Of a DNA stretch of 35,081 bases, positions 1 to 35,081 are shown in pieces; the stretch's first letter is position 1; each line of letters starts with the position of its first letter. Location of the stretch: the IMG/VR virus record IMGVR_UViG_3300044608_001174, positions 1 through 35,081 of that record; one strand, written 5' to 3'. The DNA is from a virus. The notes below the pieces were generated by a model, which was not told the DNA's origin, made no database searches, and saw only the letters and a program-made list of their open reading frames with translations. A program made the translations under genes and the position numbers.

Positions 1-8
1 GGGTCGGG
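1..8. repeat. Left copy of 8-bp terminal direct repeat
   Basis: The window begins with gggtcggg, and the same 8 bases end it at 35074-35081. A chance match of 8 bases at both exact ends is unlikely. A GC-rich short repeat beside the terminase small subunit gene fits a cohesive-end (cos) site, or a short overlap at the ends of a circular assembly. Which of these applies cannot be decided from sequence. Confidence 0.45.
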
Positions 9-23644: not shown

Positions 23645-23703
23645 ATGAGAAAACCCCTAGGCTGGAGAGGATGACAACTCTCCATTGCCTAGGGGTTCCT
23701 CAT
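23645..23703 (+). promoter_or_regulatory. Long hairpin enclosing the glycosyltransferase start codon
   Basis: Inner stem tggagag (23663-23669) pairs with ctctcca (23678-23684). After a two-base bulge, aacccctaggc (23652-23662) pairs with gcctaggggtt (23687-23697). An outer 5-bp stem (atgag with ctcat) closes it. That makes 23 pairs. The 8-nt loop holds the ATG at 23671, and the purine-rich GGAG is in the stem. There is no T tract, so it is not an intrinsic terminator. It could block ribosome entry until it is melted. Confidence 0.65.
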
Positions 23704-24816
23704 ACCGTCACGCACCCCGATTACTCAGCGTGCGCGTTCACTCAAAAAGTCTTGAAGTTCTTGGAGATGTTCAAGGACTCGAGCGAATACCGCACGATCC
23801 ATTACGGACACCCAGACTCCATCACTGCCGCTCACGAGCACGTCAATGTGACCTCTCGTGACATCCTGCAAGAGACTTACGGGGACTACGACTGGCGTAG
23901 AAACCAGTTCAAGCACTCGTCACAAGACCTTGCACATCGGGCCTTTAACCTCATCGCTGGCGAGGCAATCAAGCGGCGCAAGAAGAAAGGCGACATCGTG
24001 CTGGCCTTCTGGGGAGGCACGCAGGAAGCAACGCACATCGCCAACGCTGACAAGGACCTGATCATCGTCGAACCCGGCATCGGCAGTGGCCATGCGTTCG
24101 CTCCGTTCCGTTGTTACGAGTCTTATCCACTCCGCTCAGCGTTTGTCGGAACCGATGGTGTTTCCTACTGCAACCCAAAGTGGTATTGGCGGGTGGTGCC
24201 GAACTACTTCGACACGCGCAACTTCGACCCGACGCAGAAGCGAGAAGACTATGCGCTTTTCATCGGTCGTCTCGGAACCAACAAGGGCTTGGATCTCGCC
24301 ATCGATGCGTGCAAGCGAATGGGTGTTCGACTCAAGGTCGCTGGCCAAGGTGGGCCTGAGGGCATCGGTCTCAAGGAGTGGCCTGATCACGTCGAGTTCG
24401 TCGGCTACGCTGGCATCGAGGAGCGCAAAGAGTTGATGGCCAAGGCTCAGTTTGGATTCCTGCTTTCGACGTACTGGGAGCCGTTTGGCGGGACCGCTGT
24501 CGAAATGATGCTATCGGGATGCGTTCCGATCTGCTCTGACATGGGCGCGATGACGGAGTACATCGTTGACGGTGTGAACGGGTTCCGGTGCTCGACCATG
24601 GGTGACATCCTGCGAGCCATTCGGATCGGCTATCGTATCGATCGCTCAAAGATGGTCGCCTTCGCTCGCGCCAACTTCTCGCTCGATGCTGTCAGGCCAA
24701 AGTTCGAGCGTGCTTTTGCCGACTTCCGCGACGTGTTCAGCGGGGCGGGTTGGTATGAGGACCACAATAGGCCGTGGACGGTCGGCTATGGTCTGGACTA
24801 CTCGCCGCTCAGTTGA
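23671..24816 (+). CDS. Glycosyltransferase, GT4-type (GT-B fold)
   Basis: A 381-residue family-1-like glycosyltransferase predicted to transfer a sugar from a nucleotide-sugar. The N-terminus LHCLGVPHTVTHPDYSACAF is typical of phage and environmental GTs. The C-terminal half has the donor-site pattern: IGRLGTNKGLDLAIDA, VAGQGGPEG, and EPFGGTAVE, the E-x7-E motif of GT4 enzymes. Situated after two collagen-like fibre genes, it might glycosylate the fibres, or modify host surface sugars or DNA. The substrate is not knowable here. The start codon lies in a strong hairpin loop. Confidence 0.85.
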   Translation: MTTLHCLGVPHTVTHPDYSACAFTQKVLKFLEMFKDSSEYRTIHYGHPDSITAAHEHVNVTSRDILQETYGDYDWRRNQFKHSSQDLAHRAFNLIAGEAIKRRKKKGDIVLAFWGGTQEATHIANADKDLIIVEPGIGSGHAFAPFRCYESYPLRSAFVGTDGVSYCNPKWYWRVVPNYFDTRNFDPTQKREDYALFIGRLGTNKGLDLAIDACKRMGVRLKVAGQGGPEGIGLKEWPDHVEFVGYAGIEERKELMAKAQFGFLLSTYWEPFGGTAVEMMLSGCVPICSDMGAMTEYIVDGVNGFRCSTMGDILRAIRIGYRIDRSKMVAFARANFSLDAVRPKFERAFADFRDVFSGAGWYEDHNRPWTVGYGLDYSPLS

Positions 24817-27267: not shown

Positions 27268-27357
27268 GGATTAGGCACTTCGGAGCAGTTGACGGGATGC
27301 TTCGAGCGTGGGACGATTCATTCACGTTCATCCGGTTTTGCCGGTTGTCTGGGTTGT

Positions 27358-27389
27358 CCGATGCGGGGGAGTGAGGTCTCCCGCATCGG
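27358..27389 (+). other. Hairpin in the control region
   Basis: CCGATGCGGG (27358-27367) pairs with CCCGCATCGG (27380-27389). Two extra bases GG bulge out, then AG pairs with CT, leaving a 6-nt loop. There is no T run after it, so it is not a normal intrinsic terminator. It could be an operator-like palindrome or part of a transcript structure. Confidence 0.6.
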
Positions 27390-27398
27390 TAAACTCCT

Positions 27399-27415
27399 CA
27401 AACTCAACGAGTTTG
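27399..27415 (+). other. Short hairpin before the A-tract
   Basis: CAAACTC and GAGTTTG pair perfectly with a 3-nt loop. The A-rich run follows closely. A protein-binding palindrome is as likely as an RNA element. Confidence 0.5.
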
Positions 27416-27530
27416 CAGGGCATAAAAAAAAGATAAAAAAACTGTTGGACAGAAAACGAGAACTGTTGTTTACTGGGTGCAGTTGAGGGACGGAGCGCCC
27501 GAGACGAAACAACAAACCAGACATCACACC

Positions 27531-27788
27531 ATGCAAGACCGACTCAACATTAAGACGCGGACTCAAAAAACGCTGGATGCCGCAAAAGACGCCACCCCTG
27601 ATCAGGTCGCAATCGCCCTTCGTCGAATGAGCGAACAAACCCGCCGATTCGGCTCAACCTACTGCCCCGCGTGGCTTTTAGTGCGGTTGGGTGGACTAGG
27701 GGAGCATCAAACCGCTTTCGGGACGTTCCGGTTGTCCATGTTTGGACGGTCGCTTGCTAAGTTCAAGGTCTCTGCTCCAAAGCACTAA
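27531..27788 (+). CDS. Hypothetical early protein
   Basis: An 85-residue basic protein with a helical N-terminal half (TQKTLDAAKDATPDQVAIAL) and a hydrophobic-aromatic second part (YCPAWLLVRLGG). No family recognised. The ATG at 27531 is preceded by an A/C-rich leader (acatcacaccatg) that resembles those of other genes here. First gene after the control region. Confidence 0.45.
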   Translation: MQDRLNIKTRTQKTLDAAKDATPDQVAIALRRMSEQTRRFGSTYCPAWLLVRLGGLGEHQTAFGTFRLSMFGRSLAKFKVSAPKH

Positions 27789-27820
27789 CCAACCCCCAAC
27801 CCCCAACCTCACCTCACACC

Positions 27821-28006
27821 ATGACAACAACATCCAAAACCATCCAAGGCGCGATCCTGCTGGCTCTCGCAAACCTCGACTTCGTCTTCTTGGCCACCGT
27901 CCAGTTCGACGGATTCGCACTCGCATTCGGGCTGCTTGGCCTAGTCTCAACCGGAATCGGTTGGGCGTACATCCTCGATGCATCAAGAGAGGAGGCACGC
28001 AAGTGA
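27821..28006 (+). CDS. Small membrane protein (two TM)
   Basis: A 61-residue protein with two hydrophobic stretches (about 8-24 and 30-50) and a charged C-terminus (DASREEARK). Family unknown. The leader is strongly C-rich (cccccaacctcacctcacaccatg) and lacks Shine-Dalgarno bases. The stop overlaps the next GTG as GTGA. Confidence 0.5.
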   Translation: MTTTSKTIQGAILLALANLDFVFLATVQFDGFALAFGLLGLVSTGIGWAYILDASREEARK

Positions 28007-31358: not shown

Positions 31359-33242
31359 ATGCTGACACCGTATGAACGCGCCGCAAGCTACGCGGCAAAA
31401 GTGCCCGGGGCCGTCTCTGGGCAGGGAGGCCACTCAGCCACCTATGATCTCGCAAGAGTGCTGGCTCACGACTTCGCACTAAGCGAGGCCGAGAGCCTGC
31501 AAATCCTCGAGCAATGGAACCAGAGGTGTTCACCACCGTGGTCTCGCAAGGAACTCGAGCACAAGGTCAGGCAGGCCGCGAGCAAGCCGCACAACAACCC
31601 GCGAGGGTCGAAGCTCGACACGCACCAGACCGTCAGCCCGACGGGAAGGTTCATTATCAACCGGAACGCGGCACCAGTGGATCTCTCAGGGGATGACTCG
31701 TCGGCATCGACGATCCGATTCCTCAAGGCCGCATTCATGCCCGGTGAGCTGGTCTGCATCTGCACTCAGGCACTCGAGAGTGAAGACGGGAAGCACCGAC
31801 CGGGGAGCCATGGAACCTTCAAGCCTCTTGAGTGGTTCATCGACCAAATCGAGCAGGGAGACAACCCGTTCACCTGCTCGTCAGCATCGGGGCGATGGAT
31901 CCGCATCAACCCCTACCGGAACGAGAGTTCGACGGGGGCGGATTCCAACGTGAGCGCATACCGTCACGTGCTCATCGAGTTCGACGACCTGCCAGAGGCT
32001 GACCAGTTGGCCACCCTCAAAGGATCCAACCTGCCGCTCACCGCTATCATCTCGAGCGGGGGCCGATCGTTCCACGGTTGGGTCCGCGTTGACGCACCCG
32101 ACAAGGCAACGTGGGAGGCCCGTCGTGACCTCGTTTATCAATACCTTGAGGACGCTGGACCTTGTCCCGCGAATAAGAACCCCGGCAGGTTCTCGCGTCT
32201 GCCGGGATGCAAGCGGGGCGACCAGTGGCAACGGCTGGTCTCACTCCGCGAGGGACCGGAAACGTGGGAAGAGTTCGAGCAGTGGTTCCGCCGCAGGGAC
32301 CTGCCGCAGGTCATGACGTGGGAGACCCTCAAGGATATTCCCATCATGCCGGATCCCACCTGCATCCTAGGGGAGCGGTGGCTCTGCAAGGGTGGTTCGC
32401 TGACCATCGTCTCATCATCGGGCGTCGGGAAATCCTCGTTCTGCTTGCAGTTCGCCACAGCAATGGCCACTGGCACTCCTTTCTTCGGTATCGCACACCC
32501 CGACGGGAAGCCGATGCGTGTCGGGATCATCCAAGCAGAGAATGACTGGGGGGACGTGCTCGAAGCTATGTTCGGATCGGTCCAGTGGCTCTTGTCAGCA
32601 GGTCGAGGGACAGCAGGGGCGGGGAAGCTCCTCAACGAAAATCTGAAACTCTTCCGCGAGAACACGAAGACCGGTGCCATCTTCCTCGGCATCCTCCGCC
32701 AACTCATTAAAGAGCACCGACTGGAGGTCGTCATCATCGACCCGCTGATGGCGTTCTTCGGGGGCGATGTGAACGACCAGAAAGGGATGAGCGTCTTCCT
32801 CCGAAACACCCTGCAACCGATTCTCGAGGAGACTGGGTGCGTCGTGGTGCTCATCCATCACACGGCCAAACCGAAAGCCGAGAAGGCCCAATCCTCGAGC
32901 GAGGTGGCGTACCTCGGAGCAGGGTCCAGCGAACTCACCAACTGGTCTCGCGAGGTCGCTGTTCTGCAACGAGAGCCCGACCGGAAAGACGGGAACAAGG
33001 CCGCATTCAGCCTGACCCTTTGCAAGCGTGCTGGCCGCTCGGGGATGGTGGATGAGGAGGGAAACCGCCAACCCAAGATCCGAATCGACCACTCAACGCA
33101 GGGCATCTGGTGGGTCTACGCACCCCCACTTCCTCCCGATTCCGAGCCGGAAAAGAAGGGGAAAAAGGACGGTGAATGGACAGCAAATCGGGACGTGAAG
33201 AGCCCGATACCTAAGCGATTCAGAAAGGAGCAGGGAGAATGA
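31359..33242 (+). CDS. Primase-helicase (PriCT-like, AEP-like primase, RecA-fold helicase)
   Basis: A 627-residue replication protein. Residues ~28-76 look like a PriCT-type domain (LARVLAHDFALSEAESLQIL then PPWSRKELEHKV). Residues ~175-300 look like an archaeo-eukaryotic-type primase core, with IEFDDLP (206-211) as the acidic motif and SSGGRSFHGWVRVD (232-245) as the following motif. Residues ~330-560 form a RecA-like ATPase: Walker A SGVGKSS (354-360), Walker B VVIIDP (457-462) and LIHHTAKPK (498-506), as in RepA/DnaB-like helicases. It would prime and unwind phage DNA. The A/C-rich leader has no Shine-Dalgarno sequence. A large hairpin follows within 60 nt. Confidence 0.85.
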   Translation: MLTPYERAASYAAKVPGAVSGQGGHSATYDLARVLAHDFALSEAESLQILEQWNQRCSPPWSRKELEHKVRQAASKPHNNPRGSKLDTHQTVSPTGRFIINRNAAPVDLSGDDSSASTIRFLKAAFMPGELVCICTQALESEDGKHRPGSHGTFKPLEWFIDQIEQGDNPFTCSSASGRWIRINPYRNESSTGADSNVSAYRHVLIEFDDLPEADQLATLKGSNLPLTAIISSGGRSFHGWVRVDAPDKATWEARRDLVYQYLEDAGPCPANKNPGRFSRLPGCKRGDQWQRLVSLREGPETWEEFEQWFRRRDLPQVMTWETLKDIPIMPDPTCILGERWLCKGGSLTIVSSSGVGKSSFCLQFATAMATGTPFFGIAHPDGKPMRVGIIQAENDWGDVLEAMFGSVQWLLSAGRGTAGAGKLLNENLKLFRENTKTGAIFLGILRQLIKEHRLEVVIIDPLMAFFGGDVNDQKGMSVFLRNTLQPILEETGCVVVLIHHTAKPKAEKAQSSSEVAYLGAGSSELTNWSREVAVLQREPDRKDGNKAAFSLTLCKRAGRSGMVDEEGNRQPKIRIDHSTQGIWWVYAPPLPPDSEPEKKGKKDGEWTANRDVKSPIPKRFRKEQGE

Positions 33243-33589
33243 ATAATCCGTTATTAAATAAAACCTATTCCCCCCGCCCCGTACCACCCCCCCATCGGGA
33301 ACCCCACCGGGGGCCCATAGCCACCCCCCTTCATAGGGGGGGGTGGCGTAGGGACCCCCGTGGGGATTCCCGTGGGGAGGGGTGGGGCGAGGGCAGAGAG
33401 AGGGGAGAGAAGACAAGAAAAACCCCATTCCGCTATCTCCACCCTCGGAACGGTCTAGGACGCCGATTTGAGGCCGTTCTGTTCGATTTTCGGCCATTCG
33501 GTGACGGAATCAAAACCGTAAAACGCAATGCAGGACGGAAACGACCAATCTCCCAGAGAGCAGCAACAACCAAACAACCCGTAAACTAA
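33239..33589 (+). CDS. Doubtful low-complexity reading frame over the hairpin
   Basis: An open frame of 116 residues begins with an ATGA overlap at the primase-helicase stop, but the product (RPVPPPHREPHRGP, Gly/Arg-rich) simply reflects the inverted C- and G-rich DNA. No domain is seen. I regard the region as mainly structural DNA and list the frame as unlikely. Only a short leader peptide before the repeat might be translated. Confidence 0.15.
   Translation: MNNPLLNKTYSPRPVPPPHREPHRGPIATPLHRGGWRRDPRGDSRGEGWGEGRERGEKTRKTPFRYLHPRNGLGRRFEAVLFDFRPFGDGIKTVKRNAGRKRPISQRAATTKQPVN
33271..33395. repeat. Giant imperfect inverted repeat (candidate origin or regulatory structure)
   Basis: Core stems from outside in: GGGAA 33297-33301 with TTCCC 33367-33371; CCCCAC 33302-33307 with GTGGGG 33360-33365; GGGGG 33309-33313 with CCCCC 33355-33359; CCC 33314-33316 with GGG 33351-33353; GCCACCCCCCT 33320-33330 with the A-G run-TGGC 33335-33347 (two extra G). 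Loop TCAT 33331-33334. About 30 pairs with single-base bulges. Further C-rich (33271-33293) and G-rich (33372-33393) flanks are partly complementary. No T run follows. Confidence 0.75.
33374..33393 (+). other. G-quadruplex motif
   Basis: Four G runs (GGGG, GGGG, GGGG, GGG) separated by A, T and CGA meet the classical G3+N1-7 rule. It lies on the right arm of the inverted repeat and is followed by a purine-rich run to about 33421. Confidence 0.75.
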
Positions 33590-33596
33590 AAATAAC

Positions 33597-34572: not shown

Positions 34573-35039
34573 TCGACCCTGCAGAAATACGGGCGATTGT
34601 CGAGAGGATGCGGTCGCAAGGCCGCATCACCTCAGCCGAGCCGGACAAGGCAACCGACAAGCAATCGTTGTCAGTTCAGACCGTCAAATGTGACCAGTGC
34701 GGGATGGAGTTCGTCCCGCTCAACAACCGCAACCGGAGATGCAGCCAAGTCTGCACGAAGCGAGGGGCTTTGATGATGCGTCGCCGAAGAGGGGGACATC
34801 AGCCGCTCGGAGAGGAGCGGACTTGCGAGCAGTGCGGGACGAGGTTCCGGCAGGGCTCAATCTTGCAAAGGCATTGCAAGCCGCTTTGCACTCGACGGGC
34901 GAGGGGCAGACGGGAGAGGCAGAGACTATTAGTTGAGTCTTTAGGTATAAAGAGCAACCGGAATGATGAATGCGTGAAACCGTCAAAACGTGTCCGAAAA
35001 CCGACGAAAAACGACGTTTCATGTCTCAAAAACGAGTAA
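34569..35039 (+). CDS. Double zinc-finger protein (paralog of 33597)
   Basis: A 156-residue protein with two Cys4 clusters (CDQCGMEFVPLNNRNRRCSQVC and CEQCGTRFRQGSILQRHCKPLC, near 41-62 and 84-106) and a highly basic tail (RRARGRRERQRL). The ATG at 34569 overlaps the previous stop as ATGA. Likely nucleic-acid binding. It ends 35 nt before the right terminal repeat. Confidence 0.65.
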   Translation: MIDPAEIRAIVERMRSQGRITSAEPDKATDKQSLSVQTVKCDQCGMEFVPLNNRNRRCSQVCTKRGALMMRRRRGGHQPLGEERTCEQCGTRFRQGSILQRHCKPLCTRRARGRRERQRLLVESLGIKSNRNDECVKPSKRVRKPTKNDVSCLKNE

Positions 35040-35073
35040 GGAATCTTTTTTTTGTCCGTTTTCTGACTCCGGA
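35040..35073 (+). other. Right end, T-run before the terminal repeat
   Basis: An 8-T run at 35046-35053 follows the last stop but has no convincing G/C-rich hairpin ahead of it, so an intrinsic terminator is not proven. A gactccggag stretch precedes the terminal repeat. Confidence 0.3.
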
Positions 35074-35081
35074 GGGTCGGG
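35074..35081. repeat. Right copy of 8-bp terminal direct repeat
   Basis: gggtcggg, identical to bases 1-8. See the left copy. Confidence 0.45.

What the first reader, a model, noticed from the sequence alone, without database searches (positions are those of the whole stretch)
33271..33421. Giant C/G inverted repeat with G-quadruplex and polypurine tract
About 30 pairs with single-base bulges, centred on TCAT, sit directly after the primase-helicase gene and before zinc-finger genes. A G4 motif and a purine-rich tract follow. No protein-like sequence is encoded. Such a structure could be a replication origin that extrudes a cruciform, a packaging pause site, or a long-lived RNA structure.
Basis: partly seen in the sequence, partly recalled or inferred. 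Interest (0 to 1): 0.7.

Follow-up and report, generated by a model that had tools for sequence, protein, structure and literature searches.

The report
Structure-conserved hairpin, probable phage replication origin
A very long DNA hairpin sits directly behind the DNA-copying enzyme gene of an uncultured phage, and related phages keep the hairpin while replacing most of its letters, so it is most likely the shape-defined starting point for copying the phage genome.

Summary
The hairpin is real: about 48 bp by DNA folding (33276-33394), up to 59 bp by RNA folding (33265-33409). It is by far the strongest fold in the 35-kb genome, and no shuffle matches it. It lies directly after an archaeo-eukaryotic primase (AEP) + RepA-like helicase gene. 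Every same-clade relative with sequence past that gene (seven stem types, helicase identity down to ~69%) has a 46-78 bp hairpin at the same spot, with strongly diverged stems and compensatory base-pair changes. It follows the helicase gene, not the packaging (cos) end, whose distance varies from 0.2 to 1.7 kb.

Distant phages of Bacillota with the same enzyme (26-29% identity) also have their strongest local fold just after the gene in 13 of 14 cases. The enzyme's two domains resemble the RSF1010 pair RepB' (a primase that binds a DNA hairpin) and RepA. In plasmid pRN1 a stem-loop in this position is experimentally essential for replication (PMC4234260).

Best explanation: a structure-defined replication origin. 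The G4 motif is not conserved in all clades. Packaging and terminator roles are less likely; an RNA role is not excluded. I rate it a new variant of a known kind. No experiment exists for this phage.

The parts
31359..33242 (+). Replication protein: AEP (PrimPol-type) primase domain (about residues 110-300) fused to a RepA/T7-gp4-like (SF4, AAA_25) helicase domain (about 330-560)
   Evidence: PHROG DNA primase 4e-51; Pfam AAA_25 1e-24; PDB profile hits 6zp9 AEP 3e-4 and T7 gp4 1e-4; fold matches: S-2L PrimPol 6zp9, RSF1010 RepB' 3h25/3h20, RSF1010 RepA 1olo TMt 0.73
33243..33272 (.). Short AT-rich segment between the helicase stop and the hairpin; possible unwinding element
   Evidence: 68% AT in 33250-33274; AT-rich in the other clades too, by reading. 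Role inferred
33276..33394 (.). Long hairpin/palindrome, pyrimidine-rich 5' arm and purine-rich 3' arm, 48 bp (DNA parameters); extends to 33265-33409 (59 bp) with RNA parameters
   Evidence: conserved in place and structure in relatives
33330..33337 (.). Apical loop TTCATAGG (4-8 nt unpaired depending on the parameters)
   Evidence: loop sequence differs between clades
33374..33393 (+). G-quadruplex motif inside the 3' arm (not conserved in clade D)
33270..33293 (-). Matching C-run (G4 motif on the minus strand) in the 5' arm
33395..33421 (+). Purine-rich tract following the hairpin
   Evidence: read directly from sequence; purine-rich 3' flank seen in all clades
33422..33446 (.). Conserved sequence block 3' of the hairpin, CCCCATTCCGCTATCTCCACCCTC; candidate initiator-binding element
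   Evidence: alignment of 12 regions; 11-13 nt identical matches, opposite orientation, 3' of the hairpin of the ~41% clade
33464..33502 (+). Two imperfect direct repeats (CGATTTGAGGCCGTTCTGT / CGATTTTCGGCCATTCGGT), 20-bp period; candidate iterons
   Evidence: 79% identity; the same pair in L006

Best explanation
The region 33243-33596, with the hairpin as its core, is the replication origin of this phage. The fused AEP primase-helicase made by the gene just upstream acts there. Inferred steps: an initiator (this protein or another) binds the conserved block and imperfect repeats 3' of the hairpin. The duplex is then opened, or the palindrome extrudes under negative supercoiling. The exposed single strands fold into the hairpin. 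The primase domain recognises the hairpin and its single-stranded flanks by shape rather than by stem sequence and lays down a primer, while the RepA-like helicase domain widens the bubble. Because a palindrome gives the same hairpin on both strands, one element could serve as the initiation site for both, like ssiA plus ssiB of RSF1010, giving bidirectional replication. Shown here by computation: position, structure, compensatory change, domain make-up, recurrence behind homologous enzymes. Not shown: binding, priming, and that replication starts here.
For: Giant hairpin in every same-clade relative with sequence past the helicase stop, seven stem types. Compensatory changes: 8 of 51 pairs in clades E/F/G and 8 of 60 in B/C change on both sides, 0/500 shuffles reach this in either case, and slid controls score far lower. 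Distance to the helicase is short and constant; distance to cos varies. The ~41% clade has its own covarying hairpin in the intergenic region beyond the helicase, with 13-19 nt of noncoding sequence shared 3' of it. 13 of 14 distant Bacillota-type phages have their top local fold right after the homologous gene. Domain folds match RSF1010 RepB', solved bound to its initiator hairpin, and RepA (PMC4434180). pRN1: stem-loop after the AEP-helicase gene, essential for replication, structure conserved and sequence not, also proposed for phage BIP-1 (PMC4234260).
Against: No replication data. The pRN1 protein has an SF3 helicase and winged helix, whereas this one has an SF4 RepA-like helicase; the pRN1 loop is large, here it is tiny. 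Only two imperfect repeats lie beside the hairpin in the window, and the shared motif is weak in clades D-G. No GTG start motif lies in the tails next to the stem (by reading). Strong folding is common in intergenic DNA, and several distant phages have small annotated ORFs over the region. In SCCmec, deleting the origin's inverted repeats did not affect initiator binding (PMC7581432).
Confidence: 0.75

Rival explanations
1. RNA-level element: the hairpin acts in the transcript between the helicase and downstream genes, as an RNase III processing site, an mRNA end protector, or a Rho-type or structural terminator separating the early (replication) from the late (terminase) operon.
For: All window genes nearby are on the + strand, so the hairpin should be transcribed; in clades E-G it is the last element before cos and the terminase genes. 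Its 5' arm is among the most C-rich, G-poor 78-nt stretches of the genome, as a Rho site would be.
Against: No T-tract follows on the + strand; no terminator is called there. Mismatches in the arms are 16 A-C against 10 G-T, so no sense-RNA wobble bias, and the antisense RNA folds better in five of seven clades. In distant phages the structure lies mid-operon upstream of RusA, and in the ~41% clade it lies upstream of a minus-strand gene. A 46-78 bp stem is far beyond a terminator.
Confidence: 0.15
2. Packaging signal: a pause or recognition site for the terminase near the right cos end.
For: Gene order is helicase - hairpin - cos - small terminase; in clades D-G the hairpin is only about 0.2-0.3 kb from the right end.
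Against: The distance to cos varies from 0.2 to 1.7 kb with inserted genes, while the distance to the helicase gene stays short. TerL relatives without this helicase lack such a hairpin in the flanks scanned. A separate conserved element (TAAGGAATCTTTTT) sits beside cos.
Confidence: 0.05
3. Selfish or passive palindrome: a mobile palindromic repeat, or a hypermutable quasi-palindrome kept self-complementary by template switching, without function.
For: Rapid stem turnover with perfect re-pairing is what template-switch correction would produce; the C/G-run composition resembles bacterial palindromic repeats (own knowledge).
Against: Single copy in the genome; core found in only one other viral contig, a sister phage; no match in phages or plasmids. 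Kept at one place through seven stem types and recurring behind distant homologous enzymes. Host-genome repeats were not scanned for.
Confidence: 0.05

Closest known systems
Stem-loop origin of crenarchaeal plasmid pRN1 (and proposed for Bordetella phage BIP-1), Berkner et al. 2014, PMC4234260
   Same: Large stem-loop directly downstream of a gene for an AEP primase-helicase; stem-loop structure conserved while its sequence is not; conserved sequence flanks it; noncoding.
   Different: pRN1/BIP-1 protein carries an SF3 helicase and winged helix, here an SF4 RepA-like helicase; pRN1 stem about 21 bp with a 58-nt loop at 75 C, here 46-78 bp with a 4-8 nt loop and C-rich/G-rich arms; function tested in pRN1, not here.
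RSF1010 oriV with single-strand initiation sites ssiA/ssiB, primase RepB' and helicase RepA
   Same: AEP primase most like RepB' (fold match to the complex with its initiator hairpin, 3h25) and helicase like RepA (1olo); hairpin as priming signal; nearby repeats.
   Different: RSF1010 uses three separate proteins, 40-nt ssi elements with a short hairpin, and iterons bound by RepC; here the two domains are fused, the hairpin is several times longer, a single palindrome would serve both strands, and no RepC homolog was identified.
Vertebrate mitochondrial light-strand origin OriL (own knowledge)
   Same: Origin hairpin with pyrimidine-rich and purine-rich arms, structure kept while sequence changes.
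   Different: About 30 nt, T-rich loop, primed by mitochondrial RNA polymerase; no homology; analogy only.

Membership tests
pRN1-type stem-loop origin | AEP primase domain in the adjacent replication protein | tested here: met
   Fold match to 6zp9 and 3h25 (E 6e-6); profile hit 6zp9 3e-4
pRN1-type stem-loop origin | SF3 helicase plus winged-helix DNA-binding domain | tested here: not met
   Helicase domain is SF4/RepA/T7 gp4-like; no winged helix recognised, C-terminus disordered in the model
pRN1-type stem-loop origin | Large stem-loop directly downstream of the replication gene | tested here: met
pRN1-type stem-loop origin | Structure conserved while stem sequence is not, flanked by conserved sequence | tested here: met
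pRN1-type stem-loop origin | Large loop (58 nt at 75 C) | tested here: not met
   Loop 4-8 nt
pRN1-type stem-loop origin | Structure required for replication | not testable with these tools
   needs an experiment
RSF1010-type oriV/ssi | RepB'-like primase and RepA-like helicase | tested here: met
   1olo TMt 0.73; 3h25/3h20; fused in one protein here
RSF1010-type oriV/ssi | Iterons bound by RepC | tested here: inconclusive
   Two imperfect repeats only; motif 3' of the hairpin partly shared with a distant clade; no RepC sought
RSF1010-type oriV/ssi | GTG in the 3' tail next to the hairpin | tested here: not met
   None within about 15 nt of the 48-bp stem's base on either strand (by reading)
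Intrinsic transcription terminator | GC stem directly followed by a U-tract | tested here: not met
   Purine tract follows on +; no terminator called there
cos/pac packaging site | Fixed position relative to the cut genome end | tested here: not met
   0.2-1.7 kb from the cos end
Rfam RNA families | Match to any described structured RNA at gathering score | tested here: not met

The most novel reading that the evidence does not exclude
A single sequence-free palindrome serves as the double (both-strand) initiation site for a fused RepB'/RepA-type enzyme, recognised by shape alone, and this kind of origin is general to phages with AEP + RepA-like primase-helicases, from those of Bacillota to those probably infecting Verrucomicrobiota.
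Probability: 0.4. Interest if true: 0.75.

Novelty: new variant of a known kind. Interest (0 to 1): 0.6.

Why it matters
Most known phage and plasmid origins are defined by sequence (iterons, AT-rich DNA). Here stem sequence turns over almost freely while a 46-78 bp hairpin is held in place behind the replication gene, so the signal appears to be shape. It joins two earlier, separate observations (the pRN1 stem-loop and the RSF1010 ssi hairpins) through one enzyme architecture. It also gives a simple rule for finding the origin in many uncultured phages: look for the strongest fold directly after the AEP primase-helicase gene.

Tried and rejected
Dispersed palindromic repeat (REP/MITE-like): single copy in the genome, core in only one sister phage, no match in phages or plasmids; host genomes were not scanned for the repeat because the two genome scans went to the helicase. 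Covalently closed telomere site: rejected, the centre is not a perfect palindrome and the genome ends are cos-like elsewhere. Known RNA or tRNA: none. Protein-coding frame across the hairpin: length not conserved. G4 as the conserved feature: absent in clade D. GC skew: not informative, genes nearly all on one strand. Repeat search in the window and motif sampler: suggestive only, since the null does not correct for relatedness. First genome scan with the window clade alone found no relative; the mixed alignment found one distant homolog in a Verrucomicrobia subdivision 3 MAG (L119), so the host is only a guess. Literature searches for a streptococcal phage origin of this layout gave nothing usable in the open library.

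Full report
Setting. The window is a virus record of 35,081 bases. Its two ends share the 8-nt sequence GGGTCGGG, as do the ends of a sister contig (G001); G011 has GGGTCGCG at both ends, and several other contigs start at the same place. Relatives' contigs that run across the junction join it. The record is therefore most likely a complete linear genome with cohesive (cos) ends. The order is: replication genes, hairpin, small zinc-finger/HTH genes, cos, small terminase, ParB-methyltransferase, large terminase.

The observation. The hairpin exists and is far beyond chance: z about -6.5 on either strand and in DNA or RNA parameters, no shuffle as stable, and the strongest fold in the genome by a wide margin. 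The stem is 48-59 bp, not 30. The G4 motif lies inside the 3' arm. The region encodes no conserved protein.

Conservation. Helicase relatives fall into a window clade (69-98% identity) and a distant clade (~41%). Every window-clade member with sequence past the helicase stop has a giant hairpin at the same spot: 160-nt windows of -89 to -120 kcal/mol in the members scored, against locus means of -41 to -51. Seven stem types were found; between them much of the stem sequence differs, but the arms remain complementary (46-78 bp). Where alignment is safe, pairs change on both sides: 8 of 51 (E/F/G) and 8 of 60 (B/C), 0 of 500 shuffles equal this, and slid controls collapse to 54-66% paired. Each set holds few distinct sequences, so the counts are small. 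Over seven clades the arms have 16 A-C and 10 G-T mismatches, giving no sign of selection on the sense RNA alone. Several contigs end in or at the hairpin, consistent with a hard-to-sequence hairpin.

What it is tied to. The hairpin starts within about 0-90 nt of the helicase stop in all clades. Its distance to the right end varies from about 0.2 kb (D-G) to 1.7 kb (window), with different genes inserted. In relatives found by large terminase, no giant hairpin appeared except in those carrying this helicase, although many of those loci are short on that side. So it is linked to the replication gene, not to packaging.

Flanks. An AT-rich segment precedes the hairpin, and a purine tract and a conserved block (CCCCATTCCGCTATCnnCACCCTC) follow. 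Two imperfect 20-bp repeats lie further on. In the ~41% clade a different, covarying hairpin (8 of 29 pairs with double changes) lies in the intergenic region beyond the helicase, upstream of a minus-strand gene. The sequence 3' of it shares exact 11-13 nt stretches, and an 18 of 19 nt stretch, with clades A-C in the opposite orientation; shuffles gave at most 10. This suggests common binding sites but is weak for clades D-G.

The enzyme. The upstream gene encodes an AEP primase fused to a RepA-like helicase. The N-terminal 330 residues match cyanophage S-2L PrimPol and the RSF1010 primase RepB', including the complex with its initiator hairpin (E about 6e-6). The helicase half matches DnaB, Twinkle, T7 gp4 and RSF1010 RepA, the last with TM-score 0.73 on the target. 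Sequence profiles agree.

Wider test. I took 14 annotated phages with distant homologs (26-29% identity; Streptococcus, Enterococcus, Faecalibacterium, Flavonifractor, Paenibacillus, Dulem virus 35) and one helicase-only homolog (Microbacterium phage CaptainRex). In 13 of the 14 the window with the largest excess of folding energy over shuffles, within 2.5-3 kb each way, lies just after the primase-helicase gene; in the 14th it ranks third. CaptainRex shows no such structure. Caveats: ten shuffles per window; in some phages the top window is a repeat array rather than one hairpin; small annotated ORFs overlap the region in Castelnaud, Dulem35 and Vegas; many of the phages are related.

Precedent. 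In pRN1, a ~100-nt stem-loop downstream of the AEP primase-helicase gene is required for replication, works when moved, tolerates loss of the sequence between gene and stem, and is conserved in structure but not in sequence; the authors saw a similar stem-loop in phage BIP-1 (PMC4234260). In RSF1010, RepB' binds the foot and 5' tail of the ssiA hairpin (PMC4434180). That mode of recognition would leave the rest of a stem free to change, as seen here.

Conclusion. The most likely function is a replication origin recognised by shape (0.75). It works like the pRN1 stem-loop and like RSF1010 ssi sites, but it is not filed as a member of either: the SF3 helicase and large loop of pRN1 and the GTG start of ssi are not met. 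Initiation, binding and cruciform extrusion are inferred.

Noticed in passing
window 1-8 and 35074-35081: Terminal 8-nt direct repeat GGGTCGGG; the same position is the end of several independent contigs, suggesting cohesive ends with an overhang of about 8 nt.
   Followed up: partly
window 35038-35051: TAAGGAATCTTTTTTTT a few tens of nt left of the right end; the same motif stands near the right end or cos junction in other clades (L015-L023, G010), a candidate terminase or terminator element.
   Followed up: no
window 27340-27480 and 27770-27850: Noncoding-looking stretch with an inverted repeat (27353-27394), A-tracts, and the most C-rich, G-poor 78-nt stretch of the genome; perhaps a control region of the early genes.
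   Followed up: no
L104:5240-5344, L091, L060 and relatives: In the ~41% helicase clade, two short CTCCCTnnnAGGGAGT hairpins stand beside a long covarying hairpin with GGGGGCTCTAACGGCCCCC at its tip; similar G-first tips occur in streptococcal and faecalibacterial phages, opposite to the C-first window clade.
   Followed up: partly
L209 and L211 (Streptococcus phages Javan534, Javan31), just after the repA gene: Arrays of GGGACAAACCCGAG/AATGTCCCTG-type repeats next to a long hairpin: unannotated, iteron-like origin layout.
   Followed up: partly
window 23671-24816: Glycosyltransferase gene (Pfam Glycos_transf_1) within the phage genome.
   Followed up: no
L118 (G010 right end): A second G/C-run palindrome just before the right end in one relative (clade C).
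   Followed up: no
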